From Erodium maritimum (taxonomy: Eukaryota > Streptophyta > Magnoliopsida > Geraniales > Geraniaceae), in NCBI GenBank assembly GCA_963921825.1, contig OY997590.1, positions 37,279,039 to 37,343,038 of the forward strand: a stretch of DNA of 64,000 nucleotides. The letters are read 5' to 3'. This document shows, piece after piece, positions 2,209 through 64,000 of this stretch. The position numbers and the translations under genes were made by a program. The notes beneath the pieces are model-generated. The model searched no databases, was not told the origin of the DNA, and saw only the letters and a list, made by a program, of their open reading frames with translations. Numbering within the stretch: position 1 is the stretch's first letter; every line of letters begins with the position of its first letter.

Positions 2209-2211
2209 TAA

Positions 2212-3868: not shown

Positions 3869-3870
3869 CG

Positions 3871-4017: not shown

Positions 4018-4019
4018 CG

Positions 4020-11726: not shown

Positions 11727-11733
11727 GGGGGAG

Positions 11734-12282: not shown

Positions 12283-12453
12283 TTTTTTACCCGTTCACTA
12301 ATTTAATCATTTCCATTTCGTTTGAACTTCGATTGGCTTCAAACTTGCGCCAATATGTTTATTTTTTCAAGGGATTTCTATCAAGACCAGCTTATTCGAA
12401 AAACCCTACACAAAACCTTCTCTCTCTCTCAAGGAAGTACAAATTTGCAACTC

Positions 12454-15440: not shown

Positions 15441-15739
15441 CTCAATATACTACTTGATAGATAGCCATTGGAAAAATAAAAGTATTGGCGCAAGTTTGAA
15501 GTTAATCGGAGTTCAAACAAAACGAGAATGATTAAATTAGTGAATTGATCAAGAAAAAAATGAACACATGTCCACATGTTATTACAATTATGTCCTTACT
15601 TGTGTGAGAGATATAAGAATTGTGCGTGTATTTTGGTGAATTGTGGGTGATGATATGACATCATGGTAAATGTTGGTTCTTAGGTGTGTGTGGGTAGGAT
15701 GATTTCTCATAGTTTTTAGGATACGATGGGTTTTTATTC

Positions 15740-15775
15740 GATTTATCCTCTAGTCATAGAGGATAAATCAACTAG
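15740..15775. repeat. 13-bp perfect inverted repeat between copies A and B
   Basis: GATTTATCCTCTA, a four-base loop GTCA, then TAGAGGATAAATC. It lies in the short spacer between the two adjacent elements; a GATTTATCC also occurs just past copy B. Confidence 0.8.
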
Positions 15776-15791
15776 AAACTCATCATTAACT

Positions 15792-31415: not shown

Positions 31416-31762
31416 ATGGAGCAAGGAAAGATGAGAGGGGAGGGTTCGTCGGCGTCGGTGGGACATCCTAAAAATTCATTTGGCGGGTTTGTTGGTGGGT
31501 CGAAAAGCTTTATTGAGACGTTGATTAAAGATCATTCAGGGAGATGCAGCACAACCCGAGCTCATTATAATAACTCCAACCGGTTAACCAAGGTTTTCAT
31601 TTGTAAACTTCCCTTTAATACTACTCAGGAGTGGTTTGATTCCTATTTTGAGAGTGTTGTTAAGAATGTCAATTCCATCGTGATTCAAAGACCGAACCGG
31701 CGAGGAATTGTTTTTGGATTCATTCACCTTCAGAAGAGAAATCTGGTGAGAACCATGTTTTA
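31416..31762 (+). pseudogene. LINE ORF1-like RRM protein, 5' part
   Basis: An ATG at 31416 opens 115 codons. From about residue 52, TKVFICKLPFNTTQEW, then VNSIVIQRPNRRGIVFGFI, is a recognisable RRM (RNP2 and RNP1). RRM-type ORF1 proteins are common in plant L1 elements, where they bind element RNA. The frame stops at the insertion of the long-arm element at 31766, and similar coding text resumes beyond 33330. Confidence 0.6.
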
Positions 31763-31765
31763 ACG

Positions 31766-33321: not shown

Positions 33322-33840
33322 TGTTAAGAGTGGTTCACAATAGATTATCCCAATTCACCTTCAATATAGACAGGAGGATGAAAAGCTAATTGATAGCCAA
33401 CACGGTGTTAAAGTTTAAAGATTTTATATTTTTTCCTGGCTTTGGATTGGAGGGAAAATCTAGGCGTGGATGGACCGAGAAAGAGATCGATTTGGCATCC
33501 GAAGGTTACGAATGGCAGCTCGGGACAAATAGGCCGGGACTTAGTGGGTTTGAAAGAGGGCGTTGTTCATAAAATTAAGAATGGTGTGATTGTGTCTTTG
33601 AGGTCTAGAGTGTCACTAGAGAAAGCCTTGTAGGCGATGAATTTTGTTGGCGTTAAAGGAGTGGAAATTAGAAGGCTAAATGGTAATTTTTTTCTCCTAC
33701 TTTGCTTTGACTTATTATTTTCTAGTATTTTACTTGAGACGGATTGGAAATAGTTCATGTCTTGGTTTAAAATTTATGTTTGGATGGTTCATTGGCCTTA
33801 TTTGGTGATCATTGGGGTGGTATGAGGTTTATGGGTTCCC
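33322..33840 (+). pseudogene. LINE ORF1-like protein, continuation after copy C
   Basis: Broken frames continue the RRM-type ORF1, including VKGVEIRRLNGNFFLL followed by WFKIYVW and a GLWVP block, the order seen in the linker of plant L1 ORF1 proteins. Stops and shifts throughout. The right end is cut at 33841 by T-rich retroposon-like sequence. Confidence 0.45.
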
Positions 33841-40138: not shown

Positions 40139-40255
40139 AAGTTGCATGAGGTCATTTGTGATTATCCGTGTTTGTGTTAGGATTATGTTTTGGGTTTTTC
40201 TGCTGAAGAATGGAGAGTACTAATCCAGTTGGTTTGAGGCAGCAGAAATGGAATA

Positions 40256-40569
40256 GGGAGGTTTGTGGTTTTTTCTAGGTGAAGGTTAAATAGTTAATGG
40301 TTGTTTTTGAGGTATTGGACAAGGTCTTAGAGGTTCGGTTGTTTTCAGACCTGAGAGGTTTCATCGAACCTGGTTTTGGGCCGTTCTTTGGTGCATCAGT
40401 CATTGGTTAGGCGTCTTAAAGCTCGAACAAGTAAAAATAGGTCATGTCCAATACCTCTCAATTATCAACACCTAACTACTTGCCCGTCCTATGGGTGTCG
40501 TGCGCCTTAGTGGAGCATCCATGGGAAAGCGGAGTAGTAGGTTTGGACGACATATGTGGGTGTCGTGCG
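40256..40569 (+). repeat. 314-bp direct repeat, left copy
   Basis: Matches 41852-42164 with scattered differences, including TAGGTGAAGGTTAAATAG near the start and two GTGTCGTGCGCCTTAG motifs. In this copy it leads into the copia leader. Confidence 0.85.
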
Positions 40570-40896: not shown

Positions 40897-41851
40897 ATGG
40901 AAAATTCAGCGAACATTAATAGTTTGTCATTAAAAAGCATTCTTAACAGGGTCAAACTAAATGGGACAAACTATTTGGACTGGTACATAATTTTGAGGAT
41001 CATCCTCAAGTCTGAACGTAAAGAATATGTCCTTGACAAGGCTGTATCTAAGACCATATCAGAGTTACATGAAGTGTCATTAACTGTTGAGAAGGATATC
41101 AGGGATCTGGGATCCAAGGATAGTCTAATGGTCAACAAGGGAATTGGAAGTGGATAGGGCGGGGCCTATGCGCACTTGGAGGGAAAGATGAGACACCTGA
41201 GAAAGTCTGCTTCTACTGCCAACAGGCTGGTTAATGGGACCGAGATTATAGGAAGTTCACGGCTTATCTGAAGAAGTGTAGTGGGACTGCGCCTTCATTA
41301 GATAGCTTGGATGATATGAACAAGGGCAGTAGGACTACGCCTTCATCAGGAAACCTGGATGATCTAAGGAAGGGCAGTGGGATTGTGCCTTCATCCGGTA
41401 TTAACTCTATAGATCTACATCTCTCTACTTCCAAAGATTCATGGGTATTAGATACCAGGACTAAATCTCACACATGCACTAACGTATAGTGGCTTAAAGT
41501 ATGAGAGGTTTGGAAAGCACGAAGTGGACCTCAGAGTTGTTGCAACTGCTGTAGGATCCATGAGTATTGCTTTTCCAAGTGGCCTTGTCTTAGTATTGTA
41601 TAATGTATATTGCATACCTACTGTTAGTAGAAATATTATATCTGTATCCGTGTTTGACAAGGAAGGATATAATGTTAATATTGGAAATGGATTTTTCAAT
41701 GTTCTATGCAATGATATGTTTTATGCTAGTACTAACTTGGTTGGAGAATTGTACATATTAGATATTGGTAACAATGCCTCAAGTTCTATATATTAAGTTA
41801 ATACCAAGAGGTCTAAATCCAACGATTTAAACCTAACACTATTATGGCACT
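40897..41851 (+). pseudogene. Copia gag and protease fragment
   Basis: ATG at 40897 begins MENSANINSLS; the gag motif VKLNGTNYLDWYIILRI and LKSERKEYVLD follow. A CCHC remnant (VCFYCQQAG-like) near 41200 and a mutated protease site WVLDTRTKSH (usual DTGxxSH) at about 41440 are in different frames. SRNIISVSVFDKEGYNV and LYILDIG precede a cut-off LLWHW, the start of the pre-integrase motif. The break is where the 36-38 kb fragment begins. Confidence 0.75.
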
Positions 41852-42164
41852 GGGAGGCTCGTGGTTGTGTCTAGGTGAAGGTTAAATAGTTAATGGTTGT
41901 TTTTGAGGTATTGGACAAGGTCTTAGAGGTTCGGTTGTTTTCAGACGTGAGAGGTTTCATCGAGCCTAGTTTTGGGCCGTTCTTTGGTGCATCAGTCAAT
42001 TGTTGGGCGTCTTAAAGCTCGGACAAGTAAAAATGGGTCGTGTTCGATACCTCCCAACTATCAACACCTAACTACCTCCCCGTCCTATGGGTGTCGTGCG
42101 CCTTAGTGGAGCATCCATGGGAAAGCGGGGTAGTAGGTTTGGACGACATATGTGGGTGTCGTGC
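41852..42164 (+). repeat. 314-bp direct repeat, right copy
   Basis: Second copy of 40256-40569; it starts directly after the interrupted LLWHW codons of pol. Confidence 0.85.
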
Positions 42165-43230
42165 ATGAGATTGAAGAGGGAGATTGAAGAGGGAGATTGA
42201 AGCCCTAACAGATACCGGCGGCCAACATCGCTACGATGGAGACTGAACCGGTGGTTACCCACTGGAATCCACAACCCAATTTACTCTATCGGCCGGCTTC
42301 AAAACAGGAAAATAAAGCCTAAACCTTCATTGACGGCCAACATCAAAATTGGCGAGCCCGAGCCAATAATGTGGACGGGAAAAACAAAAGACCAAATCCA
42401 TAAAGCTAGAAAGGAAAAAGGGGGGAGATGCTGAACCACCTAGAGGTAGAAAAGAGAAACCCCGCCTCAAACTATAGCAGCCCCACCAGAATGCGTAGTC
42501 AGTCCTCTGGAACGCTCAAAAGAGCCCATCTTTGACCAACAACGAGAGAAAACCTAAGGGCAAAGAATGGAACCAAAAAATCCCAACACAAGCTACAAAC
42601 CTGGTGAATGCAGCGGTAGAGAGATGGAACGGGTGGAGAAGGACCCAAGAGCAGAGAAACTTCAGGATCCGTGTATTTTACCTCGGTAGACCAAATATAT
42701 AAGAGGAGCCACCAAACGCGGGAAACCGACCTCCACAGCGACGAGAACATGCCAAAACCACAACGTCAAAATCGACGAGAAAGCACATCTCATGACCGAT
42801 TTTGGAGAGAAACACCAAAGGTAGAGGCTACCGGTCATTGAGGCGACACCGAGAAGGCGGAGAAGCTGACATGAAGAGCCATCCACCACAACCGCGCCGT
42901 CGAACCCCGATCTGCAACGATCCCCACTTGGGGAGGAGGGGAAGCGTTTCCCATGGCCAAATATGGGACGGGACACCGAGGAAAAAGAAAAGGCAAGACT
43001 CGCAACAACGCCATAAGAGATAGAGGGACGCGTAGGAAGGATAGAGGAAGGAGGGAAGAGGACAGGAAAGCGAGGATCGGTAGTGACCTCGGTGGTCGTA
43101 GCCCCGAGGTCGCCGCCGAAAGCGACGGAGGCTTTAGGGTTATGTTAGAGAGAAGGAAGATCTCTTTTAGAGAGAGGAGAGAGGTGACCTATTTCAACTT
43201 GAAAAAACCTCCTATGTAATGCACGTTTGG
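42165..43230 (-). repeat. Dispersed GC-rich repeat, probable minus-strand retroposon 5' region
   Basis: Shares blocks with 46900-47725 (the CGACGGCCAACA and GGCGAGCCC motifs, CGATCTGC followed by CATCC/ATCCC) and more loosely with 26080-27200. No intact ORF. Ends in A/G-rich sequence. Confidence 0.4.
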
Positions 43231-43249
43231 GTGCATGATTTCTAAATTT

Positions 43250-43412
43250 TTTTCATTATAGGACTTACCTTGGGCGACAGAAGTAAACAAACCATTGATA
43301 ATGAAGGTTAATCTTTTTATTATCGTCGACCTTAAAACCGTCAGTAATGAAGGTTGAGTTATTCATTACCGACGTTTTCCAAAGCGTCGATAATGATCTA
43401 AGTTACCAACGT
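43250..43412. mobile_element. CACTA element remnant, left part
   Basis: Contains subterminal repeats of the CACTA kind: TCATTACCGACGTTTTCC, GCGTCGATAATGA and relatives in both orientations. Interrupted at 43412 by the gypsy LTR, with the target 5-mer AACGT at 43408-43412. Terminal CACTA motif not found. Confidence 0.55.
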
Positions 43413-45208
43413 TGTAATAACCACTTCTGGTCAACGTCAGTCAAACCTGCGAAAAACAGGAAAATTTAAAAATTTTAAGACAGACACTTAACTTAACTTA
43501 AATTGACCCCGAGGGTCATGCCGGACTTAAGTTGACCCCGTTATCGACTAAAATGAGTTACGGGGGACTCAGGGCAACTTCCTGGTCATTTTGGGAAAGA
43601 TTGATTTTTCGCTGGAAAAGTCACCCGAGCGACGTTTTGGTCCATTCGAGGACCGTTTTGGACCCGAAAAGCTTAGCCGTCGTCGTAGCGGTCTTAGTTG
43701 GGCCGTTTCCTTGAAGCCCGTCCAGTTTAAAATATTTTTGGGAAAAGTGCCCGTTCGGGGCCCGAAACGTCCGTTTTTCGCGAATCTGATTGGAAAATAT
43801 CAACTAGATATTTTCCAAAAGGTATGGGACCCACCTTGACACTTGTCAAGTATATGGTGGTGTAATTTTTGGAGGGAAAATGGGTGGATGTGGTGAGTTG
43901 GCCGAGTATAGGGTAAAAGGGAAAGGAGTTGGAGTTAGTTGTTATTTGTTTTAAAAATTAGAAAGAGGAAGAGAGGTTTTAGAGAGAGAAGGAGAAGGAG
44001 AAGAAGAGAGAAGAAGGAAGGTTGAGCTAGGGTTGGTGATCGAGCCCTTGGATCGAGTCAAAGCAAAGAGCAATCCCGTTCCCCTCATTCTCCTCTACGG
44101 TAATACCCGAACCGATTCTCGTTTCGATTATTTTCAAGAGCTAGGGTTTGGTTATAAAATTTGGTTTAGGGTTGTGTAGAGATTAGAGAGGTGTTGGAGA
44201 CGTTTTAGAGGTGTTTGGGAGAGAAATTTCACGTTTTCCGGTGACCGGAGGCTCGGGAGGAGCTCCGGCCACCGTGGGTGGTGGCCGGCCGGCCATGTGG
44301 TGGCTGGCCGGAGGTGGCAGCAGCCACCACTTGGTGGCCGAGCCCCTCCCTCAAACCCTAGGGTCTCGGCCAAGCCTCTTGGGTGGGGCCCACGTGCTCG
44401 GTTGCTCGGGTTTTAATGTTCGGGTGGTTTAAAACGTCCCCCGGACCACTTTTTCCTAATCGAATCGAAATTTGGAATTAATTTGGAGAAGTTGTAATTA
44501 ACGGGTTTTGGGAAACTTTAAACGTTAATTAATTGACTTAGAAGTCGGAATTCAATTCCGTCAAGTGCGTTGGGTTCCTTGAAATATTCTAAGACCGTAG
44601 AAACGAAAACAGGGACTTTTGGAGCCCCGGAAGGCAATTAACCAAAACCGGGCAGATTCGCCATGTCGGGCGAATCTGGCCCTTACGGGTCCTTTTTCGG
44701 CAATATCGAATAATTGGGAAGTTTGGGAGTGATCGGCTTTGTCGGGGTTACGTTTGGGCGTTAAGTTTATTAATTTTCGGTTTATTCGTACTAGTTTAAA
44801 AGTACTTTGAATTTGTGTTCTTTTAGATCGTGCTACGGACCGAGGCAAGGGAAAGCTCGGCGAGTGACTAGGTCCACTTCGGGTTTTGTTGGAGCGCTTT
44901 TGGATCTATATACGAGGTAGGGAAAAGTAGCCGGATCTCGGCCCTGATTAGGGAAAGTTAATAGTAGAATTGCATGTGACACCGGGGTGTCGTGGGTTGA
45001 GTAGATTTATTTAATTATTAGAAAAGCATGATACGGGATTGTAGCGTTTAAGAGAAAGGCATGTGACACTTAGTAGTGTCGTAGGAACAGAGAACTTAGC
45101 GATAATTGAATTACTGGAGGCATATGACCATGCCCGGAGGTTGTTTGTGAAACTAGCGATTTTAGGACTGTTGGAGGCATCGAGTATGCCGGAGGTTGTC
45201 GTGCGCTT

Positions 45209-45319
45209 TATTTAATTGTTGAGTTTGGGTGGCCTTGAGAGCCCGTATTTAATTGTTGAGTTTGGGTGGCCTTGAGAGCCCGTATTTAATTGTTGAGTCG
45301 GGGTGGCCATGAGAGCCGT
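45209..45319 (+). repeat. 37-bp tandem repeat in LTR copy 1, three units
   Basis: Units starting TATTTAATTGTTGAG; the third is diverged. Repeated at 54945-55055 in LTR copy 2. Confidence 0.85.
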
Positions 45320-45463
45320 GTATTTAATTTGGTGTCTTGAGTGGCAGCGAGTGCCCGTGGGGTTGTTGAACCCGAGTCTTGACTGTTGAGGTGTCTTGAG
45401 TGGCCTTGAGTGCATGTGTGATTGAACTTGCCTGTGATTGTGATTGTGGTTACCTGGGGTGGT

Positions 45464-45703
45464 GAGTTCTAAAGGTCGACAGCCTGATCCGACTTAGTGT
45501 CGATGAATTGCGAGTTCTAAAGGTCGACAGCCTGATCCGACTTAGTGTCGATGAATTGCGAGTTTTAAAGGTCGACAGCCTGATCCGACTTAGTGTCGAG
45601 GAATTGCGAGTTTTAAAGGTCGACAGCCTGATCCGACTTAGTGTCGAGGAATTGCGAGTTTGAAAGGTCGACAGCCTGATCCGACTTCGTGTCGAGGAAT
45701 TGC
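45464..45703 (+). repeat. 48-bp tandem repeat in LTR copy 1, five units
   Basis: Units of the form GAGTTCTAAAGGTCGACAGC...GAATTGC with small changes. The same array occurs at 55200-55439 in LTR copy 2. The other gypsy LTR (4801-7823) has an unrelated 45-bp array in a similar relative position. Confidence 0.93.
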
Positions 45704-46282
45704 GATAGGTCGAACCCTGACCTGATTGAGATTGGTTACTGAGCAGCTGGTGTGCGATCCTTTGTGATCTTGTTTGGTGTTGCGTCGTTTCGTTCGAGTC
45801 CTTGAGGAGGTCGTCGATAGTTGTGTCGGGTCTACACTGTTTTTATCGAGTGTCGAGCCTGTTGAGGAAGGTGACGGGTTGTGGGTCAGTTGGGTATCTG
45901 AGTTGGGGACTGTAGTCCCGGTGTCGGGTTTGGTTTTAGTGTTACTGGCTTCTTCTGCTAATTATGCCATAGTCAGTCTGTTATCCGTGGAGGTGAGCGA
46001 ACGCTCACCCCTAGCTGCTTTTCCTACAGGTACTGATCACCGGACGGACTAGGTGAGCTCTTGAAGTTCATGGAGCTTGGAGCGGAGTCTGGTCTTTACT
46101 TTGTTGAGTCTAGTGACGGATGTTGTACCTTGTCCACTTGTTGGGACGTTTTTGTATTGTAAATGCTATTATTTTGAGAAGTAAATGGAAATGTCAAAAC
46201 TTTTATTGAAAACCGGTTTCAAGTGTTCATGTTTTAAATGTTCGCGTCCCGAGTTCGGTTCGCTGAAATTTGGGGCGTGACA

Positions 46283-46560
46283 AACGTTTTCCAAAACGCC
46301 AAAGTTGAAATGGCCGGTATTCATTACCGACTATTTTTTAACGTCGAGAAAGTTATTCAACATCAATTTTTTTAACGATAATAAATAACTTCACTGACAT
46401 TCTTGAGGTGGTCTAATATTTTGTCAGTTTGAAATTTTACGACGCTTTAAGAGCGAGAAACTTCACTGATGAGCTGTATGTCAGTAAAGTTCATTACCAG
46501 CGTTTTTAGTAACATTACTAACGGATTAGTTTCGTTGGTAATGAAACATTTTGTAACATA
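46283..46560. mobile_element. CACTA element remnant, right part
   Basis: Continues the CACTA subterminal repeats past the LTR (ACGTTTTCCAAAACGCC, ATTCATTACCGAC, GGTAATGAAACATTTTGTA). Duplicated almost exactly at 56019-56296. Confidence 0.55.
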
Positions 46561-47725
46561 GAGGAAACACCAGTATTGGGCACTTGCAAAGGTCGATGCC
46601 ATGTCAATGCTGTTGTCCTCATTAGCCAATGTCGGCCAGCACCCCCCCCCCCCTTGCCAACATGTATTAGTTTTTTTATCAGCAAGACATATTATAAAAT
46701 CTCTTCTTTGAAGAGAAGAACAAGGGTGGAATTACAACCTAATAAGCATTCCACAAGGGGAAACTTAACCAACAACCTCAACATACTAAGGAAAACCAGA
46801 TCAACACAACACCCTCACACAACCAGAGATAAACAACACCAGAAGAAGAGAAAAAACTAGAACCGGAGACAACAAAAATAGATCTATAATCTGGATTTGC
46901 CCACCATGAAGCTCAGTAAGAAAAAAATGTCTATATTACCCAAATTTACCTACCATTAAGCCCAAGAAGAACCGGTAGCCACTAACTACCCAAAGCACCT
47001 CAACCCTAACCTAATTTAGCCTAACCTCCTCTCCCAGCTCAAAGAACAACATATACTAGAAAAGGGAACTACAGACTTTATAATGTTGCACCGCGAACGA
47101 CAGAGACATTCCGACGGAAATCTACCAGAACCCACTGAGCCTAATTACTTTGAACGAAAGGCTTAAAAGCCCAAACACTCATCGACGGCCAACACCGATA
47201 ACCGGCGAGCCCAAGCCACACAATGTAGAAGAGAACTCGAAAAGACCATACAAATAATAGAGGGACAGGGGAGGGAGAAGAGAACCAAACTCAGTCAGGA
47301 CAGAGGTGAAAATCATACATCTGGCCTTCAATGAGGAAGGCCCAAAAGAAGACGACTTCAGAAGTCGCAGATCTGAGTGAAAGGTTAAAGCTACGAACAG
47401 CGCCACTGAGAGTAAAGCCCAACTCACCAGCAACGAAAACCAACTAGTACCGCGACGATCCTTGAGAAAGAAGCATGTCCCACATCCCGAGTCAGAAGAT
47501 GTCGCCGGGATCAGGAAAGAGAGCTCCTCCGCCGCGACACTGAAGGGACTACCACCATGGCAGCAACGGTGGGCCGGATCTGCGACCATCCTCACCGTGG
47601 GAGTTGAGGAATGTCGTCCCACAGTCAGATATGACCCGTCCCGCCACCGACCCACACAGGAGCGCCTAGGAAAAGAAACGAGAACAGGTGAGAAAGAGGG
47701 AGCGAGAAAAGAGAGGCAAGACTTC
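46561..47725 (-). repeat. Right-flank sequence with minus-strand retroposon, first copy
   Basis: A C12 tract at 46642-46653 and a T run near 46672 followed by sequence that on the minus strand is a LINE-like 3' end; the GC-rich body extends to 47725. Identical by eye to 56297-57461. At 47726 the sequence switches abruptly to the gypsy interior. Confidence 0.6.
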
Positions 47726-48297
47726 ACCGTCATGTCTTGAGTCTTCTTTTTGTTTGTGCGTATGTTACAGTATTTTGTTGCTGGCATACTGATTGTGTGT
47801 GATTGCGTGAACTGTTTTTTAACTGTCGCGGGTCGACTCAGGAGCGCTCCTGTAGTCGAACGTGACGGTGTTGATGTCAAGTCGGTACAACGTGGTTCGG
47901 GGACGCCTGAACCGGGTTGTAACTACGTGATGTCAAGGAACGAAGTTTTAAAATGAAAGGGTGAAGGTTTTAAAATTATTGGCCCTGTTGGCATGTCTTG
48001 AACTTGATTGGCCCTATGGGCATATGTTTGATTTTTGATTGGCCCGGTGAACGGGGGTCGTCGTGTTGTGTGGGTTGGTTTGCCGTCGCTTGTTTGGTGC
48101 ACGTCGGTGCGGTCTCGTTGTGGTCTCGTTTACTAATGCTAGTATATAAAGTACGTTTAGCTTGAGCGGTGTAGCGCTTTAGTGATAAGCACGTTAGTGT
48201 AAGCTTAAGAGGGTGGACGTTAGTGCGTTTGTACTGTCGTTTTTATTTAAGTTCGCAAACTGAACGTTTGCGTGTATCCGTGCAGAGGATACTGTTT
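47726..48297 (+). other. Gypsy internal leader, truncated at its 5' side
   Basis: Noncoding T/G-rich leader before the polyprotein. No primer-binding site and no LTR end precede it; instead it is fused to flank sequence at 47725/47726, with short similarity (CC-TCATG) to the undisturbed flank at 57463-57470. Confidence 0.65.
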
Positions 48298-51200
48298 ATG
48301 GCTCGCGGTAAGCGGGGACGACCATCAGGAACGCGGGGCCAGGCACCCACGCGAGGCCGGCGGGGACGGTCAGCAGGGGCACCAGGGAGGGTGCCGACCG
48401 TCGAGCCCGCCGACTATGCGGAGGCACAGGGTACTCCTGTCGGAGAAGACAGGAGGAGTGATGCGGGGCCGTCTGCAGGCACCCCCAGTGTTCCGCCAGT
48501 CGCGGACCCTCCAGTGATGACTGCCCTGGATGAGCTTACCAGGACCGTTCAGAGTTTGGTGGCGATCATCGCCAGCCGAGAGTCGGCTTCGCCAGCACCA
48601 GAGGCAGCCGCAGTCCCGGTGAGGGCTGCTCAGACAGAGGATCTTACCTCCCGAGCGCTACTAGATTTCCTGAAGCTCGGGATACCTGTTTTTGTCGGGG
48701 AGCCGAATCCCGACCTGGCTGAGCGATGGATAGAGCAGGTCACACGAGACTTGGACACATCGGGTGTCGAGGATGGCCGTCGGAGAGTGTCCTTCGCGGC
48801 CCATCAGCTGAGAGACAGCGCCTACCACTGGTGGGGGCGGGTGAAGGACACGGTCGGATACGACTACAGCGTATTCCAGGAGGTATTCACGGCACAGTAC
48901 TTCCCCGAGTCGGCTCGGCTGGAGCGACATCGGCAGTTCTTAGACCTGGAGCAAGGGGGGATGACGGTAGGAGAGTACGAAGCCAGGTTCACAGCCTTGG
49001 CCAGATTCGCGCCTGAGATGGTGACGAGCGAGGCGAACCGTTGCCTGCGGTTCCAGGACGGACTGAGGCTGGGCATCCGGAACCAGGTTCTCGCCTTGAG
49101 GATACGGAAGTATACCGACCTCGTGGACACCGCAGCTACAGTAGAGCAGGGCGCCAGGGATGCAGTCAGGAGCCGTGAGGTCCGACCTCGGCCGATCAGT
49201 TGGGCAGGGCCGTCAGACTCACGAGACTCGCGGAGGCAGAGGACCGCGGGATCCTTCCGACCACCGCCTCATCAGAGTGGATCGAGACAGCAGGGGTCAG
49301 TGGCATCAGTGGGGCCAGTCGCCTCAGAGAGGAGGCCGTCATGCTATCACTGCGGGCAACCAGACCACTTACAGCGAGACTGTCCGACGAGGGGAGGAAC
49401 CGCGGCAGTACCAGCTACTAGCCGGACAGGCCAGGGCTCGGGGTCGAGGGCTGACGAGATCAGCTGTTACCGATGCGGCCGGGCCGGTCACACTATGGCA
49501 TGGTGCCGAGAGCAGTTGGGGGAGACATCAGTGCAGCGACCGCAGCAGTCGCGGACAGTACAGTCGCCCAGAGGTCGCCTTCGACAGGGTCAGCAGCCGA
49601 GATCATCACGGCCGTCTACGAGCGCACCAATTCCGAGACAGCAGCAGAGTCACGGGTATCCAGCAGCCAGTGCGCAGGGTCAGAGGCAGCAGGCCTCGCA
49701 GGGGAGAGTATATGCAGTCACCGACTCCAGAGCCCCAGGACCTAGCACGTACCGTGAGACCATCCAGGGTACGTGTTTGTTGTATCATTTATGGGCTTTG
49801 TTCTTGTTTGATACCGGGGCATCGCACTCTTTTATTTCGTCGGGTTGTGCTGAGAGGTTGGGGTTGAGCTTAGAGCCGTTGAGTCCACCCCTATGCCTGG
49901 ACACCCCAGTTGGGGGTGGTGTATCGTTGACTAGAGTATGTCGTGCCTGCGAGATTAGAGTCGCAGACTGTCCTTGCCCTGGTGACCTTCTCGTGTTGGG
50001 GATGACTACCTTTGATGTGATTTTGGGTATGGATTGGTTGTCGAGGTACCGAGCCAACATCGATTGCTACAGACGACGAGTGACAGTGACAGTGGGCGGT
50101 ACGAAGGTGACGTGCGTGCTGGGGAGTAAGAGTGGGGTCCTCCTGTCGGCGTTGTCTGCAGAGGAGGAAGTACCGGCTGTGCAGAGCCGAGAGTTACCGA
50201 GAGTGGTATGCGAGTTCCCCGAGGTCTTTCCTGAGGAGTTGAGCGGGCTGCCACCGATTCGTGAGGTGGAGTTCGGGATTGACCTAGTGCCGGGAACGGC
50301 GGCGATATCGATGGCGCCTTACAGGTTTGCGCCGGCAGAGTTGACTGAGCTGAAGCGTCAACTGGAGGAGCTTCAGCAGAAGGGGTTTATCCGTCCGAGT
50401 GCATCGCCGTGGGGAGCACCAGCACTCTTCGTGAAGAAGAAGAGTGGAGAGCTACGGATGTGTATAGATTACCGGAAGCTGAACCGGGTTACGGTGAAGA
50501 ACCGGTACCCGATGCCGAGGATCGATGACTTGTTTGACCAGTTGAGAGGGGCGACTCACTTCTCGAAGATCGATCTGCGATCCGGTTATTATCAGTTGCG
50601 AGTCCGTGAGGGGGACGTCGCAAAGACTGCATTCCGGACACGCTATGGGCATTACGAGTTCCTGGTGATGCCATTCGGACTGACGAACGCGCCAGCAGCG
50701 TTCATGGACCTGATGAACAGCATCTTCCGGCCGTACCTGGATCAGTTTGTGGTGGTGTTCGTGGACGATATCCTAATATATTCGCAGAACGAGGCGGCGC
50801 ATGAGGCACATCTGAGGGTTGTTCTGACCCTACTGCGCGAGCACCAGCTATATGCCAACCGGGAGAAGTGCGAGTTCTGGCTCTCTGAGGTGAGATTCCT
50901 CGGCCACATCGTATCCCGTGACGGTATCCTGGTCGATCCGTCGAAGATCGACGCGGTCTCGAAGTGGGCACGGCCCATGAGTGTTTTCGAGATCCGCAGC
51001 TTTCTGGGATTGGCAGGCTACTATAGGCTATTTGTCCAGGATTTTGCACGACTAGCCGCACCGATGACTCTGTTAACGCGCAAGGGTGTTGGGTTCGTGT
51101 GGACAGATGACTGTGAGCGTGCGTTCGCGGAATTGAAGACTCGACTGACTACAGCTCCAGTGTTAGTGGTGCCCGAGCGAGGGATTGGCTATGATGTTTA

Positions 51201-53205
51201 CTGCGATGCATCCGGAGAGGGACTGGGTTGCGTGCTGATGCAGTCGGGCAGAGTTGTGGCTTATGGCTCCAGGCAGTTGAAGATACACGAGCGCAACTAT
51301 CCTACCCACGACTTGGAGCTAGCAGCAGTCGTGTTTGCGCTAAAGAGCTGGCGATATTACCTGTACGGCGAGGGGTTTCAGGTGTTCTCGGATCACAAGA
51401 GCCTCAAGTACATATTTTCCCAGCGAGACCTGAACATGCGTCAGCGACGGTGGATGGAACTACTCGAGGAGTACGACTTCGAGCTACACTACCACCCAGG
51501 CAAGGCGAACGTTGTCGCCGACGCCTTGAGTAGGAAGTCGGCTCCGAGCCTCGCCAGCATATCTGTCCGAGAGTGGGACATGATGGGGGAGCTGAGCACA
51601 TTCGGGCTTGAGCTAGAGGAGGTTACTGGCGGTGTTGCCATGTGCTCCCTAGTGGCTCAGCCCTCACTGCTTGCCCAAGTGTTGGAGGCGCAGAGGGAGG
51701 ACGTCGAAGCATCAGAGATCCGCGAGAGAGTCGTCAGGGGTGACGAGGTGGTGGGCTGGCAGGACAGTACTGATTGGGGACTACGGTACCGCGGGGGGCT
51801 GTTCGTACCAGTTAACTATAGAGATGCCGTGTTACGAGAGGCACACCATTCGCGTCTCGCAGTGCATCCGGGGGGCACCAAGATGTACCGTGACCTCAGG
51901 AGGCACTACTGGTGGCGCGGCATGAGGAGAGCAGTCGCAGAGTTTGTGTCGAGATGCCTTGTCTGTCAGCAGGTGAAGGCAGAGCATCAGCGTCCCGCGG
52001 GATTGTTACAGCCACTACCGATTGCTCAGTGGAAGTGGGAGCACATTACGATGGATTTCGTGTGTGGACTACCGAGATCGCCCAAGGGAAACGACGCCGT
52101 GTGGGTGGTAGTCGACCGGTTGACCAAGTCGGCCCATTTTCTGGCTATGAGGATGACAGACCCGGTCGACAAGTTGAGCAGTCTGTATATCCAGGAGATA
52201 GTGCGCCTCCACGGGGTCCCGGTGTCGATAGTGTCTGACATGGATCCCCGCTTCACGTCCAGGTTCTGGCCGAGTCTGCAGAAGGCACTGGGGACAGAGG
52301 TCCTACTCAGCACAGCACATCATCCTCAGACAGACGGTCAGTCTGAGCGTACCATTCAGATCTTGGAGGACATGCTGCGAGCATGTGTGCTGGATTTCAG
52401 GGGATCTTGGGAGACCCACCTGCCATTGGCCGAGTTCGCCTACAACAACAGCTTCCAGGCCAGTATCGGGATGGCACCGTTCGAAGCGTTGTATGGTAGG
52501 CCGTGTCGGTCACCAGTATGCTGGGCAGAGGTGGGGGACAAGAGTCTGCTGGGGCCAGATCTTGTCAGAGAGACGACGGAGAAGGTCACATTGATCCGCG
52601 ATCGGTTGAGGACCGCGCAGAGCCGGCAGAAGAGTTATGCAGACAGGCGACGTCGACCTCTTGAGTTTGCAGTCGGGGATCACGTGTTCCTGAAGGTGAG
52701 CCCGAGGAAGGGGCTGGTGCGGTTCAGGCGCAGCGGGGGAAAGTTGGCTCCGAGGTACATAGGCCCGTTCCAGATCTTAGACAGAGTGGGAGTCGTGGCT
52801 TATCGTCTGGCGTTGCCACCGCAGCTTGGGAGAGTACATAACGTCTTCCACGTATCCCAGTTGCGGCAGTACAACGCAGACCCCTCCCACGTCATCGAGT
52901 GGACTGATATCGAGGTGGCTGATGATGTCTCCTATGAGGAGCAGCCGGTTCGGATCATGGACACACGGCAGCAGATTCTGCGGGGAGGCAAGATTATCCG
53001 CTTGGTCCGAGTGCAGTGGAAACATCCCGGAGCTGAGTCGACGTGGGAACGCGAGGACGAGGTTCGCGCGAAGTATCCCGGCCTGTTCGACTCCCGAGGT
53101 ACGTCTGTTTTAAATTTCGCGGACGAAATTTCTTTAAGGGGGGTAGACTGTAATAACCACTTCTGGTCAACGTCAGTCAAACCTGCGAAAAACAGGAAAA
53201 TTTAA
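48298..53205 (+). CDS. Tekay/Del-like chromovirus gag-pol polyprotein, intact ORF
   Basis: Uninterrupted frame; an upstream in-frame ATG at 48223 exists, but [11 protein letters not shown] at 48298 (1,635 residues) is the likelier start. Order: gag core, two CCHC knuckles at about 349 ([14 protein letters not shown]) and 390 ([14 protein letters not shown]), protease FDTGASHSF (Asp at 505), RT with FVDD at 821, RNase H (YCDAS, Asp 970; later LSRK), integrase zinc finger from 1183, and a complete catalytic triad D1253, D1314, E1350 with 35-residue spacing. The C-terminus carries a chromodomain-like segment ([15 protein letters not shown]) that in this clade guides insertion to heterochromatin. 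RT before integrase and the chromodomain define a Ty3/gypsy chromovirus. The frame runs past YPGLFD through the polypurine tract to a stop inside the LTR. It is the only intact long transposon ORF here. Confidence 0.95.
53136..53148 (+). other. Gypsy polypurine tract
   Basis: AAGGGGGGTAGAC directly before the TG of LTR copy 2, the expected plus-strand primer. Confidence 0.85.
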
Positions 53206-56018
53206 AAATTTTAAGACAGACACTTAACTTAACTTAAATTGACGCCGAGGGTCATGCCGGACTTAAGTTGACCCCGTTATCGACTAAAATGAGTTACGGG
53301 GGACTCAGGGCAACTTCCTGGTCATTTTGGGAAAGATTGATTTTTCGCTGGAAAAGTCACCCGAGCGACGTTTTGGTCCATTCGAGGACCGTTTTGGACC
53401 CGAAAAGCTTAGCCGTCGTCGTAGCGGTCTTAGTTGGGCCGTTTCCTTGAAGCCCGTCCAGTTTAAAATATTTTTGGGAAAAGTGCCCGTTCGGGGCCCG
53501 AAACGTCCGTTTTTCGCGAATCTGATTGGAAAATATCAACTAGATATTTTCCAAAAGGTATGGGACCCACCTTGACACTTGTCAAGTATATGGTGGTGTA
53601 ATTTTTGGAGGGAAAATGGGTGGATGTGGTGAGTTGGCCGAGTATAGGGTAAAAGGGAAAGGAGTTGGAGTTAGTTGTTATTTGTTTTAAAAATTAGAAA
53701 GAGGAAGAGAGGTTTTAGAGAGAGAAGGAGAAGGAGAAGAAGAGAGAAGAAGGAAGGTTGAGCTAGGGTTGGTGATCGAGCCCTTGGATCGAGTCAAAGC
53801 AAAGAGCAATCCCGTTCCCCTCATTCTCCTCTACGGTAATACCCGAACCGATTCTCGTTTCGATTATTTTCAAGAGCTAGGGTTTGGTTATAAAATTTGG
53901 TTTAGGGTTGTGTAGAGATTAGAGAGGTGTTGGAGACGTTTTAGAGGTGTTTGGGAGAGAAATTTCACGTTTTCCGGTGACCGGAGGCTCGGGAGGAGCT
54001 CCGGCCACCGTGGGTGGTGGCCGGCCGGCCATGTGGTGGCTGGCCGGAGGTGGCAGCAGCCACCACTTGGTGGCCGAGCCCCTCCCTCAAACCCTAGGGT
54101 CTCGGCCAAGCCTCTTGGGTGGGGCCCACGTGCTCGGTTGCTCGGGTTTTAATGTTCGGGTGGTTTAAAACGTCCCCCGGACCACTTTTTCCTAATCGAA
54201 TCGAAATTTGGAATTAATTTGGAGAAGTTGTAATTAACGGGTTTTGGGAAACTTTAAACGTTAATTAATTGACTTAGAAGTCGGAATTCAATTCCGTCAA
54301 GTGCGTTGGGTTCCTTGAAATATTCTAAGACCGTAGAAACGAAAACAGGGACTTTTGGAGCCCCGGAAGGCAATTAACCAAAACCGGGCAGATTCGCCAT
54401 GTCGGGCGAATCTGGCCCTTACGGGTCCTTTTTCGGCAATATCGAATAATTGGGAAGTTTGGGAGTGATCGGCTTTGTCGGGGTTACGTTTGGGCGTTAA
54501 GTTTATTAATTTTCGGTTTATTCGTACTAGTTTAAAAGTACTTTGAATTTGTGTTCTTTTAGATCGTGCTACGGACCGAGGCAAGGGAAAGCTCGGCGAG
54601 TGACTAGGTCCACTTCGGGTTTTGTTGGAGCGCTTTTGGATCTATATACGAGGTAGGGAAAAGTAGCCGGATCTCGGCCCTGATTAGGGAAAGTTAATAG
54701 TAGAATTGCATGTGACACCGGGGTGTCGTGGGTTGAGTAGATTTATTTAATTATTAGAAAAGCATGATACGGGATTGTAGCGTTTAAGAGAAAGGCATGT
54801 GACACTTAGTAGTGTCGTAGGAACAGAGAACTTAGCGATAATTGAATTACTGGAGGCATATGACCATGCCCGGAGGTTGTTTGTGAAACTAGCGATTTTA
54901 GGACTGTTGGAGGCATCGAGTATGCCGGAGGTTGTCGTGCGCTTTATTTAATTGTTGAGTTTGGGTGGCCTTGAGAGCCCGTATTTAATTGTTGAGTTTG
55001 GGTGGCCTTGAGAGCCCGTATTTAATTGTTGAGTCGGGGTGGCCATGAGAGCCGTGTATTTAATTTGGTGTCTTGAGTGGCAGCGAGTGCCCGTGGGGTT
55101 GTTGAACCCGAGTCTTGACTGTTGAGGTGTCTTGAGTGGCCTTGAGTGCATGTGTGATTGAACTTGCCTGTGATTGTGATTGTGGTTACCTGGGGTGGTG
55201 AGTTCTAAAGGTCGACAGCCTGATCCGACTTAGTGTCGATGAATTGCGAGTTCTAAAGGTCGACAGCCTGATCCGACTTAGTGTCGATGAATTGCGAGTT
55301 TTAAAGGTCGACAGCCTGATCCGACTTAGTGTCGAGGAATTGCGAGTTTTAAAGGTCGACAGCCTGATCCGACTTAGTGTCGAGGAATTGCGAGTTTGAA
55401 AGGTCGACAGCCTGATCCGACTTCGTGTCGAGGAATTGCGATAGGTCGAACCCTGACCTGATTGAGATTGGTTACTGAGCAGCTGGTGTGCGATCCTTTG
55501 TGATCTTGTTTGGTGTTGCGTCGTTTCGTTCGAGTCCTTGAGGAGGTCGTCGATAGTTGTGTCGGGTCTACACTGTTTTTATCGAGTGTCGAGCCTGTTG
55601 AGGAAGGTGACGGGTTGTGGGTCAGTTGGGTATCTGAGTTGGGGACTGTAGTCCCGGTGTCGGGTTTGGTTTTAGTGTTACTGGCTTCTTCTGCTAATTA
55701 TGCCATAGTCAGTCTGTTATCCGTGGAGGTGAGCGAACGCTCACCCCTAGCTGCTTTTCCTACAGGTACTGATCACCGGACGGACTAGGTGAGCTCTTGA
55801 AGTTCATGGAGCTTGGAGCGGAGTCTGGTCTTTACTTTGTTGAGTCTAGTGACGGATGTTGTACCTTGTCCACTTGTTGGGACGTTTTTGTATTGTAAAT
55901 GCTATTATTTTGAGAAGTAAATGGAAATGTCAAAACTTTTATTGAAAACCGGTTTCAAGTGTTCATGTTTTAAATGTTCGCGTCCCGAGTTCGGTTCGCT
56001 GAAATTTGGGGCGTGACA
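53149..56018 (+). repeat. Chromovirus LTR, copy 2 (3' LTR)
   Basis: Same ends as copy 1 and followed by AACGT at 56019-56023. The pair 43408-43412 and 56019-56023 would be a perfect target duplication for the whole 12.6-kb interval. Confidence 0.95.
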
Positions 56019-56296
56019 AACGTTTTCCAAAACGCCAAAGTTGAAATGGCCGGTATTCATTACCGACTATTTTTTAACGTCGAGAAAGTTATTCAACATC
56101 AATTTTTTTAACGATAATAAATAACTTCACTGACATTCTTGAGGTGGTCTAATATTTTGTCAGTTTGAAATTTTACGACGCTTTAAGAGCGAGAAACTTC
56201 ACTGATGAGCTGTATGTCAGTAAAGTTCATTACCAGCGTTTTTAGTAACATTACTAACGGATTAGTTTCGTTGGTAATGAAACATTTTGTAACATA
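56019..56296. mobile_element. CACTA remnant, second copy of right part
   Basis: Near-exact copy of 46283-46560 at offset 9,736 bp. Confidence 0.6.
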
Positions 56297-57815
56297 GAGG
56301 AAACACCAGTATTGGGCACTTGCAAAGGTCGATGCCATGTCAATGCTGTTGTCCTCATTAGCCAATGTCGGCCAGCACCCCCCCCCCCCTTGCCAACATG
56401 TATTAGTTTTTTTATCAGCAAGACATATTATAAAATCTCTTCTTTGAAGAGAAGAACAAGGGTGGAATTACAACCTAATAAGCATTCCACAAGGGGAAAC
56501 TTAACCAACAACCTCAACATACTAAGGAAAACCAGATCAACACAACACCCTCACACAACCAGAGATAAACAACACCAGAAGAAGAGAAAAAACTAGAACC
56601 GGAGACAACAAAAATAGATCTATAATCTGGATTTGCCCACCATGAAGCTCAGTAAGAAAAAAATGTCTATATTACCCAAATTTACCTACCATTAAGCCCA
56701 AGAAGAACCGGTAGCCACTAACTACCCAAAGCACCTCAACCCTAACCTAATTTAGCCTAACCTCCTCTCCCAGCTCAAAGAACAACATATACTAGAAAAG
56801 GGAACTACAGACTTTATAATGTTGCACCGCGAACGACAGAGACATTCCGACGGAAATCTACCAGAACCCACTGAGCCTAATTACTTTGAACGAAAGGCTT
56901 AAAAGCCCAAACACTCATCGACGGCCAACACCGATAACCGGCGAGCCCAAGCCACACAATGTAGAAGAGAACTCGAAAAGACCATACAAATAATAGAGGG
57001 ACAGGGGAGGGAGAAGAGAACCAAACTCAGTCAGGACAGAGGTGAAAATCATACATCTGGCCTTCAATGAGGAAGGCCCAAAAGAAGACGACTTCAGAAG
57101 TCGCAGATCTGAGTGAAAGGTTAAAGCTACGAACAGCGCCACTGAGAGTAAAGCCCAACTCACCAGCAACGAAAACCAACTAGTACCGCGACGATCCTTG
57201 AGAAAGAAGCATGTCCCACATCCCGAGTCAGAAGATGTCGCCGGGATCAGGAAAGAGAGCTCCTCCGCCGCGACACTGAAGGGACTACCACCATGGCAGC
57301 AACGGTGGGCCGGATCTGCGACCATCCTCACCGTGGGAGTTGAGGAATGTCGTCCCACAGTCAGATATGACCCGTCCCGCCACCGACCCACACAGGAGCG
57401 CCTAGGAAAAGAAACGAGAACAGGTGAGAAAGAGGGAGCGAGAAAAGAGAGGCAAGACTTCTCCATCATGATTGAGAGGAGCCCTGCTCAGAACCTCATC
57501 GATCCACGTCAAAAAAAGGCAGAGAAAGGCATCGTACTACCAATTCTAAAGAAAATCCTTCTGTCGTAGAAGGAAAAAAAATCAACTTGAGCTTCGCCGA
57601 AGAAAGACAACAGGAAGAAGAAAGGAAAACGAGAAAAAAAAAGATAGAGGAGAAGGAGAAAGAAGGGTTGGTCTGGTGGCTCACCTTGTCAGAACCAAGT
57701 AAACCATCGATAGCGTCGACAAGAAAGTGAAAGGGTTGTTTCCCTCAAGGATAAGTCTCCTAATATGTACAACCGCAAATGTGCTTTTACGAGACACATC
57801 CACAAAGTCGTCTAA
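56297..57815 (-). repeat. Right-flank sequence with minus-strand retroposon, second copy, extended
   Basis: Matches 46561-47725 up to 57461, then continues in what appears to be the undisturbed form (A/G-rich, then ordinary sequence) to the Harbinger-like element at 57816. Confidence 0.55.
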
Positions 57816-58178
57816 GGGTATCCACAATCGTGGGCGGGGAGGCGCTGGCGAGGAGCAATCGCCGACGAGGAGGAGGCGTGGAGCTGGCAGGTCGCTGGCG
57901 GGTAGGTCGCTGGCAGGGAGATCGCTGGCGGGGAATGTAGCCATTGAGGTCCTCGTCAGCACTCCTCGCTGGCGGGGTGAGCTGGGCCTCCTTGGTCGTC
58001 GTGCCGGCCGTTGGCTAATGACGCGCTGGCGACACGTGTCCCCTCGCTGGCAGCCCACTTTAGTTTTCTTTTTTGCTTTTTACCCCTATAAATATCAACC
58101 CTCTTATTTCAATTTTCATCCACAAATTCTACCTCCTCTCTATTTTCACTCAACTACTTATATTTTTTCCGTCTTGCA

Positions 58179-59161
58179 ATGTCGTTCGATCTCAACGAGT
58201 GGGGCTCTATGTTTACCTCGTTGAACGACGACTCGTTGAACGACGACTCGTTCGACCCGATGACGCAACAGTTGTTCCCTCCTAGCCTTTCATCTGTTCC
58301 GACAACCGATGCAGCTCCAAGGTTACCGAGGCCACCTCCGTGGTTCCACCAAAACTTAAAGGGAGGCGAAATTTGTGGAGCGTCGATGAGGATGAGCGTT
58401 TAGTTCGAGCTTGGATGCACCATTCCTACGATTCAATTCACGGGAATCCGAAACATAATCTGAAGTATTGAGGGGTCATCTCCGATGAAGTTGCTGCTAT
58501 GCATGGATCGGATGATCCGGTAAGGTCACTGAAGCAGTGCAAAGACCACTGGGCCAAGTCATGGGATTTACACACAGATGATGAGGTACCACAGGAGCGG
58601 GCGTTCCGATGATGAAGTCACGACATTGGCCGAGTAACAGTACGAGAAGAAGGAAGGACATCCATTCACTTGGAAACGTTGGTGGAAGCTAGTCCGAGAC
58701 AAGCCGAAGTGGACTTCAAAATATTTTGAAGTCGAGCAGCTCGAGGAAGGAAACGATGGCACACCGATGAGTCACTTCGATGTCGATGTGTCTACCGACT
58801 CGGGCAAGCGCACTTGTGAAGACACGCCGTAGGAGGAGAGTGAGCGAACCGCGGGTGCTACAGATGAATGTCGATCGTCGTACCAGCGGCCTATGAGTCA
58901 GAAGGCTGCCAAAGATGCGAAGCTAAGAGGTAAAAACCCTGTAGCATCCAAGAAGGAGCTTGTCGAGAGTGTTAACCAGGCCCATTTAGCGGCGACAGAA
59001 GCAAACGCGGCGTTGGAAAAAGCCACGACATCCCAACTGAAGCTCAAGGCATTCGATCGATGGTTAGTAGAGGAATCGAATGACACATCGGCCATGACTC
59101 CCCCTAGCTTGAGGCACCGATCTGATGAAGTAGTGTCGCATCCCGTGCTTTTTTTATTTTA
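58179..59161 (+). pseudogene. Harbinger ORF1 (Myb/SANT-like), broken
   Basis: ATG at 58179 reads MSFDLNEWGSMFTSL after a TATA-like CCTATAAATATC at 58084. A frameshift near 58365 leads to a frame with WSVDEDERLVRAWMHHS, SLKQCKDHWAKSW, and later HPFTWKRWWKLVRDKPKW, the order of Myb-like Harbinger ORF1 proteins. Several stops (about 58469 and 58611 onward) interrupt it. The last open piece (MSQKAAKDAKLRGKNP to 59161) is Ala/Lys-rich and helical, like the family C-terminus. Confidence 0.65.
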
Positions 59162-62115: not shown

Positions 62116-62733
62116 AACCTACCAATACCGTGCCAATGCTACGTGAATACGGTTAACTATCCTCTGTGTTACTCTAAAGACAGACATAATATAGACCGAT
62201 AAAGAGGTAAGAACTGACCGAATCATAACTTCTCGTCTCGCTGGAGATAATAGTGTCCCTTCACACGAACTAATTCAAGATATTACACGATCACCCAAGT
62301 ATGTCATTGACGCTTTCAATTTCTACCAATCATATTGGGGATCCCTAGATACATCTAAGCGGTTGAGGTCTCGGTTATAGAAAGAATACTACAACATCCT
62401 TGTCGTATTTCTAATGTTGTATTCATGCTAAACATAGTAGATGAGTTATTCAGATTGAGGACTTGTCTCGAGATATTGCCGAAAACGTTGAGAATGTTTT
62501 GGATACGTTGTGCCTCAGTAGTGGTGGGCATGCAGAATATACAACAGTCATCTACAAAACAAAATATGGGATGCCTCTAGGGCTCCTCTTGCGACCTTGA
62601 TACCATGGAGAAGGCTTATGCCCTGCGCTTTTTGTAGTAAGTGAGAATGCATTTTCATGCAGAGGAGGAACAAATAGGGATAAAGGGGGTCACCTTCGCG
62701 GATTCCTCGCGATGATGTGTGCTTTTAGGCGTT

Positions 62734-62754
62734 CCCCCCCTCCCCCCCCCCCCC
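62734..62754 (-). repeat. C7-T-C13 tract (G on the LINE sense strand)
   Basis: Located just after the RT YSIT segment, where a Gly-rich part of RT is expected; it shifts the frame. Confidence 0.95.
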
Positions 62755-64000
62755 GAGGTTATAGAATATGTGACTGTCTGCATACAGTAGGACATTAAAT
62801 CTACCCAGTCCGAGGAGAAACCCAACCTGATCATAATCGGCTGCAGATAGCTCCATTCAACCCTATCATATGTCTTACTCATGTCTAGCTTGAGAGCCAT
62901 AAAACCAATCACCACATACCACTTATTTTTCATACGGTGTATGACCTCGAAAGAAATAACGACATTATCTTGTATGCATCGCTTGGGATGAATGGGCCTT
63001 GTGTTTCTTATATGACATGTTGTAAGAGGGGTCGGAACCTGTTTTCCAATACCTTGGATAATATTCGGAAAATCACATTACACAGGGAAATAGGCCATAG
63101 ATCGTAGCCACGTCAGGATTCGGTTTCTTAGGGATCGTAAATAGTTGGGTGAAATAATCTTAAATGCTCATTCATTCTCGAATCCCATGTTACCATGGTA
63201 CCAAAGGCGTTTTTGGGCCACAACAGCATTCACTCGTCTTTGATACGATGACGAAGTGTGCAAGAATTTGGTGTTCTTATCCCTTTCTACTAGCCAATGT
63301 TGTTTCCCTCAGAAAGCTTCTTGAACACACAAGGCATTCTCGTATTGAATCTTGATTGCCTCCCTTCTGTGGATCCCTGCCCGATTAGTACGTCCATTAA
63401 GTTCTGTAATCCTCTACTGACACCATTTGATATTGTTTACATTTTTCTTAAAATGGCGGCGACCCCAATTATCCAGAGAAGTCCTAACTTCCTTAATGAC
63501 CTCCTTAATAGCAACCCCCGGAGATTTTTTTCCAGGTCCGTTGTATCACATCACTACATTCTGGGTCTATGATCCATTGTGATTGGAAGCGGAATTTCAG
63601 TTGGCCCCGATCAAGAACTTTTCAGGCTAAAGAGAGAAAAATAGGCAGATGATCTGAAGTGGTGACCAAGTATTACGGAATTCTAGGTCAGATAATAAAG
63701 AGAAGAACGAGTCAGTGATTAGGGCTCTATCCTACCGTGACTGAATTCTCCGATAAGGCGTTTGTCCTTGAAACCATGTTAAATGATGCCCCATCATTGG
63801 GACATCAATGAGGTCTAAATCCTCAACTAGAAAAAAATCATCAACCATAGTCGCTGGGTAGGACCTCCTCCTATAGTTTCATCCGTATTTAGAATACCGT
63901 TGAAATACCCAATAATAATCCAATTTGGTCAGGAGGAGGTGTGAAGGCGCCTTAGTGGATCCTAAGTCTGATTTCGATTACCCCGACAAGCTTCGTCTTA

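What the first reader, a model, noticed from the sequence alone, without database searches (positions are those of the whole stretch)
43413..57461. Near-perfect 4.3-kb duplication of LTR plus right flank, 9,736 bp apart
43413-47725 (LTR, TSD, CACTA remnant, retroposon) recurs at 53149-57461 with one mismatch seen and no indel. LTR pairs can be identical, but identical flanking DNA cannot come from simple retrotransposition. One route is a tandem duplication with breakpoints in the right flank and element interior, followed by LTR-LTR recombination that made copy 1 solo. Another is an assembly join of a solo-LTR allele to a full-length allele.
Basis: partly seen in the sequence, partly recalled or inferred. 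Interest (0 to 1): 0.75.

Follow-up and report, generated by a model that had tools for sequence, protein, structure and literature searches.

The report
Retrotransposon LTR-and-flank duplication, break-repair scar
A young plant jumping gene carries, just behind its left end, a copy of the DNA that lies to its right, most simply explained by one mis-templated repair of a chromosome break, although an assembly error cannot yet be ruled out.

Summary
43413-47725 and 53149-57461 are 4313 bp each, with one mismatch (C43508/G53244) and no indel. The unit is a 2870-bp LTR, then AACGT, then the rest of a 1443-bp right flank. AACGT occurs left of LTR1, right of LTR1 and right of LTR2; a polypurine tract precedes LTR2. 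This is therefore best read as one Ty3/gypsy insertion. Its gag-pol frame is open. Where the primer-binding site and start of the interior belong stands a copy of its own right flank. The anatomy reduces to one non-homologous join, 47725/47726.

A break just inside the 5' LTR lets the LTR end prime on the 3' LTR, copy through it into the flank, and then be end-joined to the interior. Seven of nine bases past the join resemble the flank's continuation; this is weak and also fits a misjoin. Misassembly stays possible (about 0.3): there were no reads, and the whole-genome tool did not complete. The ingredients are known, the combination is unusual, and interest is modest.

The parts
43408..43412 (.). 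Left target-site duplication AACGT
43413..46282 (+). LTR1, 2870 bp, TGTAATAACC...GGGCGTGACA; flanked on both sides by AACGT
46283..47725 (+). Copy 1 of the right flank (1443 bp, starts AACGT), sitting where the primer-binding site and start of the interior should be
   Evidence: no TGGTATCAGAGC-like site between LTR1 and gag
47725..47726 (.). Novel join, flank to element interior; next 9 bp 7/9 similar to the flank's continuation at 57462
47726..48297 (+). Taken as the remaining part of the element's untranslated leader, 5' part missing
   Evidence: inferred from position upstream of gag; missing length unknown
48298..53205 (+). Single open gag-pol frame, ATG at 48298, 1635 aa, ending 57 bp inside LTR2; gag, zinc knuckle, protease, RT, RNase H, integrase
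53136..53148 (+). Polypurine tract AAGGGGGGTAGAC directly before LTR2
53149..56018 (+). LTR2, 2870 bp, one mismatch to LTR1 (53244)
56019..57461 (+). Copy 2 of the right flank (starts AACGT), identical over 1443 bp to copy 1, continuing into 57462 and beyond; taken as the original right flank
   Evidence: that 57462+ is the original continuation is inferred

Best explanation
One young Ty3/gypsy element inserted at AACGT. Later a double-strand break fell just inside its 5' LTR, in or near the primer-binding site or leader. The LTR1 end invaded the 3' LTR of the same element (on the same molecule, the sister or the homologue), because the two LTRs are nearly identical. It was extended through LTR2 and on into 1443 bp of right flank, was released, and was joined by microhomology-type end joining to the other break end at what is now 47726. 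The primer-binding site and part of the leader were lost. Shown: identity, boundaries, TSDs, open gag-pol, the single non-homologous join. Inferred: the break, strand invasion, copying, and that 57462 onward is the original continuation of the flank.
For: The copied tract runs without a break through LTR, AACGT and flank, and its left limit is the LTR start, as copying from the 3' LTR would give. AACGT stands left of LTR1, right of LTR1 and right of LTR2, with a polypurine tract left of LTR2: this fits one insertion. Only one illegitimate join is needed. The only mismatch is at base 96 of the LTR, left of a 4217-bp identical tract, as conversion from the right predicts; but it is one mismatch, and the two-step routes predict the same. 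The 9 bp past the join match the flank's continuation at 7/9; 0.19% of 200000 random window pairs reach this, but the stretch was chosen after the fact. Repair of a break in one LTR with the other LTR as template is already proposed for tandem LTR elements (PMC11899658, passages). Conversion between the two LTRs of one element is predicted in 25% of plant LTR pairs and is reported as more frequent than between elements (PMC7251063, passages). SDSA-type duplications with microhomology of 2-9 nt or filler are described in primates (PMC2671141, passages).
Against: The copied flank (1443 bp plus part of the LTR) is longer than the several hundred nucleotides a review gives for most SDSA (PMC7407515, passages), than the 619-bp maximum of the proximal repair duplications of PMC2671141, and than the 1-123 bp fillers at rice transposon excisions (PMC4423477, passages). 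The flank donor would also lie about 8.3 kb away, outside the 5-kb class that PMC2671141 trusts. So a long-tract or BIR-like event is needed. The two-step routes predict the same sequence. The interior left of 47726 before the event is unknown, so true microhomology cannot be measured, and short similarity at the join fits a misjoin as well. The test of whether 57462+ is the original continuation was inconclusive. No reads, no second haplotype and no other copy of the element were available.
Confidence: 0.4

Rival explanations
1. Assembly error. Nearly identical 2.87-kb LTRs, or a solo-LTR and a full-length allele, led the assembler to leave LTR1 into the right flank; the contig ended at 47725 and was closed onto the element interior.
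For: The pattern is what LTR confusion would produce; the flank copies are identical, 0 differences in 1443. The join falls at no element boundary that I could identify. A short, imperfect similarity at the join (7/9) could also guide a false gap closure. The artefactual nature of some tandem TE structures is said to be hard to discard (PMC11899658, passages).
Against: The two ends share no overlap beyond that imperfect 9 bp, and flank copy 1 and the leader have no real homology, so an ordinary overlap-based switch at this point is unlikely. The window holds no N. If haplotypes were merged, almost no heterozygosity shows over 4.3 kb (1 mismatch).
Confidence: 0.3
2. Two events: a 9736-bp tandem duplication (47726-57461) with breakpoints in the leader and the right flank, then homologous recombination between LTR1 and the first duplicated LTR; or an illegitimate exchange between a solo-LTR allele and a full-length allele.
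For: Gives the identical sequence, including the mismatch near the LTR's outer end. LTR-LTR recombination is common in plants: 883 solo LTRs to 474 full elements in Arabidopsis in one survey (PMC5379124, passages). Tandem duplications of 3 kb-1 Mb, often with microhomology at the ends, are known in cancers (PMC7407515, passages).
Against: Needs two events within the short time allowed by 1 mismatch in 4313 bp. No third LTR copy shows in the window (matches of 60 bp or more), though recombination would have removed it.
Confidence: 0.25
3. The whole 4313-bp unit is one very long LTR of an element with a 5.4-kb interior.
For: The two copies bracket an open gag-pol.
Against: TG...CA ends and AACGT TSDs fall at 43413/46282, not at 47725; the bases after 57461 are not AACGT; no TGGTATCAGAGC-like primer-binding site follows 47725.
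Confidence: 0.02

Closest known systems
Tandem LTR-retrotransposon structures of plants (PMC11899658; LTR-IN-LTR-IN-LTR of LTRtype, PMC5379124; passages of both)
   Same: A TSD-flanked insertion made complex, with LTR-templated recombination as one proposed cause; gypsy for 82% of the 28 rice tandems selected there.
   Different: Here there are two LTRs, one truncated interior, and host flank between LTR and interior. The selected rice arrays alternate LTRs and interiors; that paper set more complex structures aside, so forms like this one may be among them.
Repair-mediated (SDSA) duplications of nearby DNA (PMC2671141, passages); one-sided invasion repair in plants (Puchta 1998, seen only as a reference entry)
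   Same: Copying from a nearby template, then end joining with short similarity.
   Different: The template would have been entered through LTR homology; the tract is longer (1443 bp beyond the LTR) and the donor farther (about 8.3 kb).
Solo LTR with TSD
   Same: LTR1 is flanked by AACGT on both sides and followed by flank.
   Different: The element's interior and second LTR follow, the interior 1.4 kb downstream, and LTR2 ends on the same AACGT.

Membership tests
Ty3/gypsy LTR retrotransposon | gag, protease, RT, RNase H, integrase in this order | tested here: met
   Pfam gives gag, zinc knuckle, protease, RT, RNase H, integrase zinc-binding domain, Tf2-1-like SH3; integrase core PF00665 not listed, but residues 1170-1408 match PFV integrase, and the best PDB hit is Ty3 Gag-Pol
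Ty3/gypsy LTR retrotransposon | TG...CA LTRs, 5-bp TSD, polypurine tract | tested here: met
Ty3/gypsy LTR retrotransposon | primer-binding site right after the 5' LTR | tested here: not met
   no TGGTATCAGAGC-like site (motif recalled, one edit allowed) after LTR1 or in 47726-48297; the same scan finds it at 4019 beside another repeat pair. Other tRNA primers not excluded
Tandem LTR-retrotransposon structure | LTR-IN-LTR-IN-LTR sharing a middle LTR | tested here: not met
   two LTRs, one interior
Solo LTR | single LTR between two TSD copies, no interior at the site | tested here: inconclusive
   LTR1 has both TSDs, but interior and LTR2 follow at the same site
SDSA / repair-mediated duplication | microhomology, filler or deletion at the breakpoint | tested here: inconclusive
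   7/9 imperfect similarity past the join; pre-event interior sequence unknown; no word of 11 or more bases with at least 3 on each side of the join occurs elsewhere in the window
SDSA / repair-mediated duplication | tract length and donor distance in the described range | tested here: not met
   1443 bp beyond the LTR and about 8.3 kb, against 619 bp maximum within 5 kb in PMC2671141 (passages); so filed only as 'works like', not as a member
SDSA / repair-mediated duplication | real molecule rather than assembly | not testable with these tools
   no reads; the genome search did not complete

The most novel reading that the evidence does not exclude
DNA repair rather than RNA read-through can place host flanking DNA between the two LTRs of a retrotransposon. 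The 5' LTR uses the 3' LTR as a template and drags a kilobase or more of neighbouring DNA inside the element, in one step removing the primer-binding site and so disabling the copy while leaving gag-pol open.
Probability: 0.35. Interest if true: 0.5.

Novelty: new variant of a known kind. Interest (0 to 1): 0.3.

Why it matters
If the join is real, the locus is a clean and young record of LTR-templated break repair that ran on into flanking DNA. It would be a route for host-sequence capture inside retroelements that needs no retrotransposition, and a way to disable an element without deleting it. It would also be a trap for annotation and for LTR dating, because the near-identity of the LTRs would then date the repair and not the insertion. 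If it is an assembly error, it is a marker for a class of LTR-induced misjoins that leave no gap.

Tried and rejected
Whole unit as one long LTR: rejected by the TSD and TG/CA positions. Simple retrotransposition: cannot copy flank.

Test of whether the left-flank stretch 42615-43412, next to the retroposon paralogue, runs on into 57462+ or into 47726+: inconclusive. The raw alignment scored higher with 57462+ (140.5 against 116.5), but extension gains were no better than with shuffled tails (57462+ tail: 123 of 200 shuffles as good; 47726+ tail: 198 of 200).

Hairpin at the join: not more stable than shuffles (z +1.17; 181 of 200 shuffles fold as well). Filler templated from elsewhere in the window: no word of 11 or more bases with at least 3 on each side of the join was found.

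Search for other copies of the element to recover its missing leader: no pattern match in viral contigs. In genome contigs, 7 stretches matched a pattern and 1 encodes a relative: a 57%-identical pol on a 3.8-kb contig, too distant to help. The protein search scored 7989 candidates and gave 17 proteins, the best by E-value 39% identical over 67% of the query, the highest identity 49% over 28%; it gives no genomic context. The own-genome search was asked seven times in the same form and never answered. Two neighbouring open frames (62655-63074 minus, 57703-58221 plus) matched no Pfam family at E 0.1. ARAGORN found no tRNA gene in the window.

No paper describing LTR-flank-truncated interior-LTR was noticed in the listings of seven searches. 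Passages of seven papers were seen (PMC4423477, PMC7251063, PMC2671141, PMC7407515, PMC6923311, PMC11899658, PMC5379124), none read whole, so this is no claim that none exists.

Full report
Observation. Laid in register at 9736 bp, 43413-47725 and 53149-57461 differ at one of 4313 positions (C43508, G53244), with no indel. Outside the pair the 50-bp bins fall at once to background, 32-47 mismatches each. A BLAST of the window against itself gives this pair as its top non-self hit. The finding is confirmed.

Anatomy. The repeat unit is an LTR of 2870 bp (43413-46282, TGTAATAACC...GGGCGTGACA) followed by 1443 bp of right flank that begins with AACGT. AACGT stands left of LTR1 (43408-43412), right of LTR1 (46283-46287) and right of LTR2 (56019-56023), while LTR2 is preceded by the polypurine tract AAGGGGGGTAGAC. 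So LTR2 is the 3' LTR, both LTRs are best read as one insertion at AACGT, and the right flank occurs twice: once outside LTR2, where it belongs, and once directly behind LTR1, where the primer-binding site and the start of the interior should be. No TGGTATCAGAGC-like site (motif recalled, one edit allowed) lies behind LTR1 or in 47726-48297. The same scan finds one at 4019, right beside the first of a 149-bp repeat pair that looks like the LTRs of another element (3870-4018 and 11733-11881, 97.3%), so the scan itself works. Other primer tRNAs were not tested.

The interior. From ATG 48298 one frame is open for 1635 codons, to 53205, ending 57 bp inside LTR2. Pfam gives Retrotrans_gag, zinc knuckle, RVP_2, RVT_1, RNase H, integrase zinc-binding and Tf2-1-like SH3 domains; the integrase core model was not listed. 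The best solved relative is Ty3 Gag-Pol, and residues 1170-1408 match PFV integrase. The host is taken to be a plant from the look of its repeats and from plant proteins among the hits (Solanum, Brassica, Actinidia), but the 17 hits also include fish, fungal and other proteins, so the host is inferred, not shown. A Tekay-type chromovirus placing is recalled and untested.

The join. Because 47726 onward leads collinearly into gag and should once have been preceded by LTR and primer-binding site, 47725/47726 is taken as the new join. The 9 bases past it resemble the flank's own continuation at 57462 (7 of 9). Of 200000 random window pairs 0.19% reach that, but the stretch was picked after seeing it. 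Flank copy 1 and the leader share no real homology (best BLAST E 0.35). That 57462 onward is the original continuation of the flank is inferred; a test with the left-flank paralogue's neighbourhood was inconclusive.

Age. One difference in 4313 bp gives about 9 thousand years at a recalled plant rate of 1.3e-8, with a 95% upper bound near 50 thousand years; 0 in 1443 bp of flank alone bounds it at about 80 thousand. This dates the duplication, not the insertion.

Mechanism. Three histories give the same letters. (A) One event: a break just inside the 5' LTR; the LTR end primes on the 3' LTR, is copied through it into 1443 bp of flank, and is end-joined to the interior. (B) Two events: tandem duplication of 47726-57461, then LTR-LTR recombination; or a solo allele joined to a full-length allele. 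(C) An assembly misjoin. A is the most economical and agrees with the LTR-bounded left edge, the single join and the lone mismatch lying at the outer end of the LTR, though B predicts these too.

Against A, its tract is longer than the several hundred nucleotides that one review gives for most SDSA (PMC7407515), than the 619-bp maximum of proximal repair duplications in primates (PMC2671141), whose 5-kb donor limit it also exceeds (about 8.3 kb), and than the 1-123 bp fillers of rice excisions (PMC4423477). So I say that it works like such a repair, not that it is a member of that described class. A break in one LTR repaired with the other LTR is already proposed for tandem LTR elements, and four rice long reads confirmed one such tandem (PMC11899658); intra-element LTR conversion is reported as frequent (PMC7251063).

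C is weakened by the lack of overlap at the join, the lack of N in the window and the near-zero divergence, but only reads can settle it. My weights are A 0.40, C 0.30, B 0.25.

Function. With no primer-binding site the copy should not be able to start its own reverse transcription (established knowledge of LTR elements; inferred for this copy). LTR1 could still drive a transcript that carries 1.4 kb of flank before gag-pol. That is untested.

Verdict. The arrangement is present in the sequence and well defined. The ingredients are known; the combination (host flank locked between the LTRs of one insertion by a repair-like event) is a variant I did not notice in the listings and passages looked at (searches; passages). 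Interest 0.3 pending reads.

Noticed in passing
L001 (Streptomyces clavifer JCM 5059, BMWJ01000031.1), 54-3335: A 3.8-kb contig filed under a bacterial genome encodes a pol protein 57% identical to this plant-type Ty3/gypsy element (best segment; query residues 532-1611); probably eukaryotic contamination of that assembly.
   Followed up: no
window 3870-4018 and 11733-11881: A 149-bp repeat pair, 97.3% identical; the first copy is followed at once by TGGTATCAGAGC, and GAGGGGGAG precedes the second: looks like an LTR element with very short LTRs.
   Followed up: partly
window 45209-45329 and 45464-45705 (and the copies at 54945-55065, 55200-55441): The LTR holds two tandem arrays, 37-bp and 48-bp units (3.2 and 5.0 copies), with the same copy number in both LTRs.
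   Followed up: partly
window 14989-16838 and 31760-33335: Diverged family (pieces about 68-88% identical) of TTTTATCAACAC-rich 22-bp arrays in two places, in both orientations, with short related pieces at 12061-12390.
   Followed up: no
window 42226-42614 and 56825-57210: The left flank carries a diverged copy of the retroposon-like sequence of the right flank (77% over its best 83 bp), same orientation.
   Followed up: partly
window 40248-40568 and 41844-42164: A 321-bp direct repeat, 93% identical, 1596 bp apart, of unknown class.
   Followed up: no
window 53149-53205: The gag-pol frame has no stop before the polypurine tract and ends 57 bp inside the 3' LTR.
   Followed up: partly
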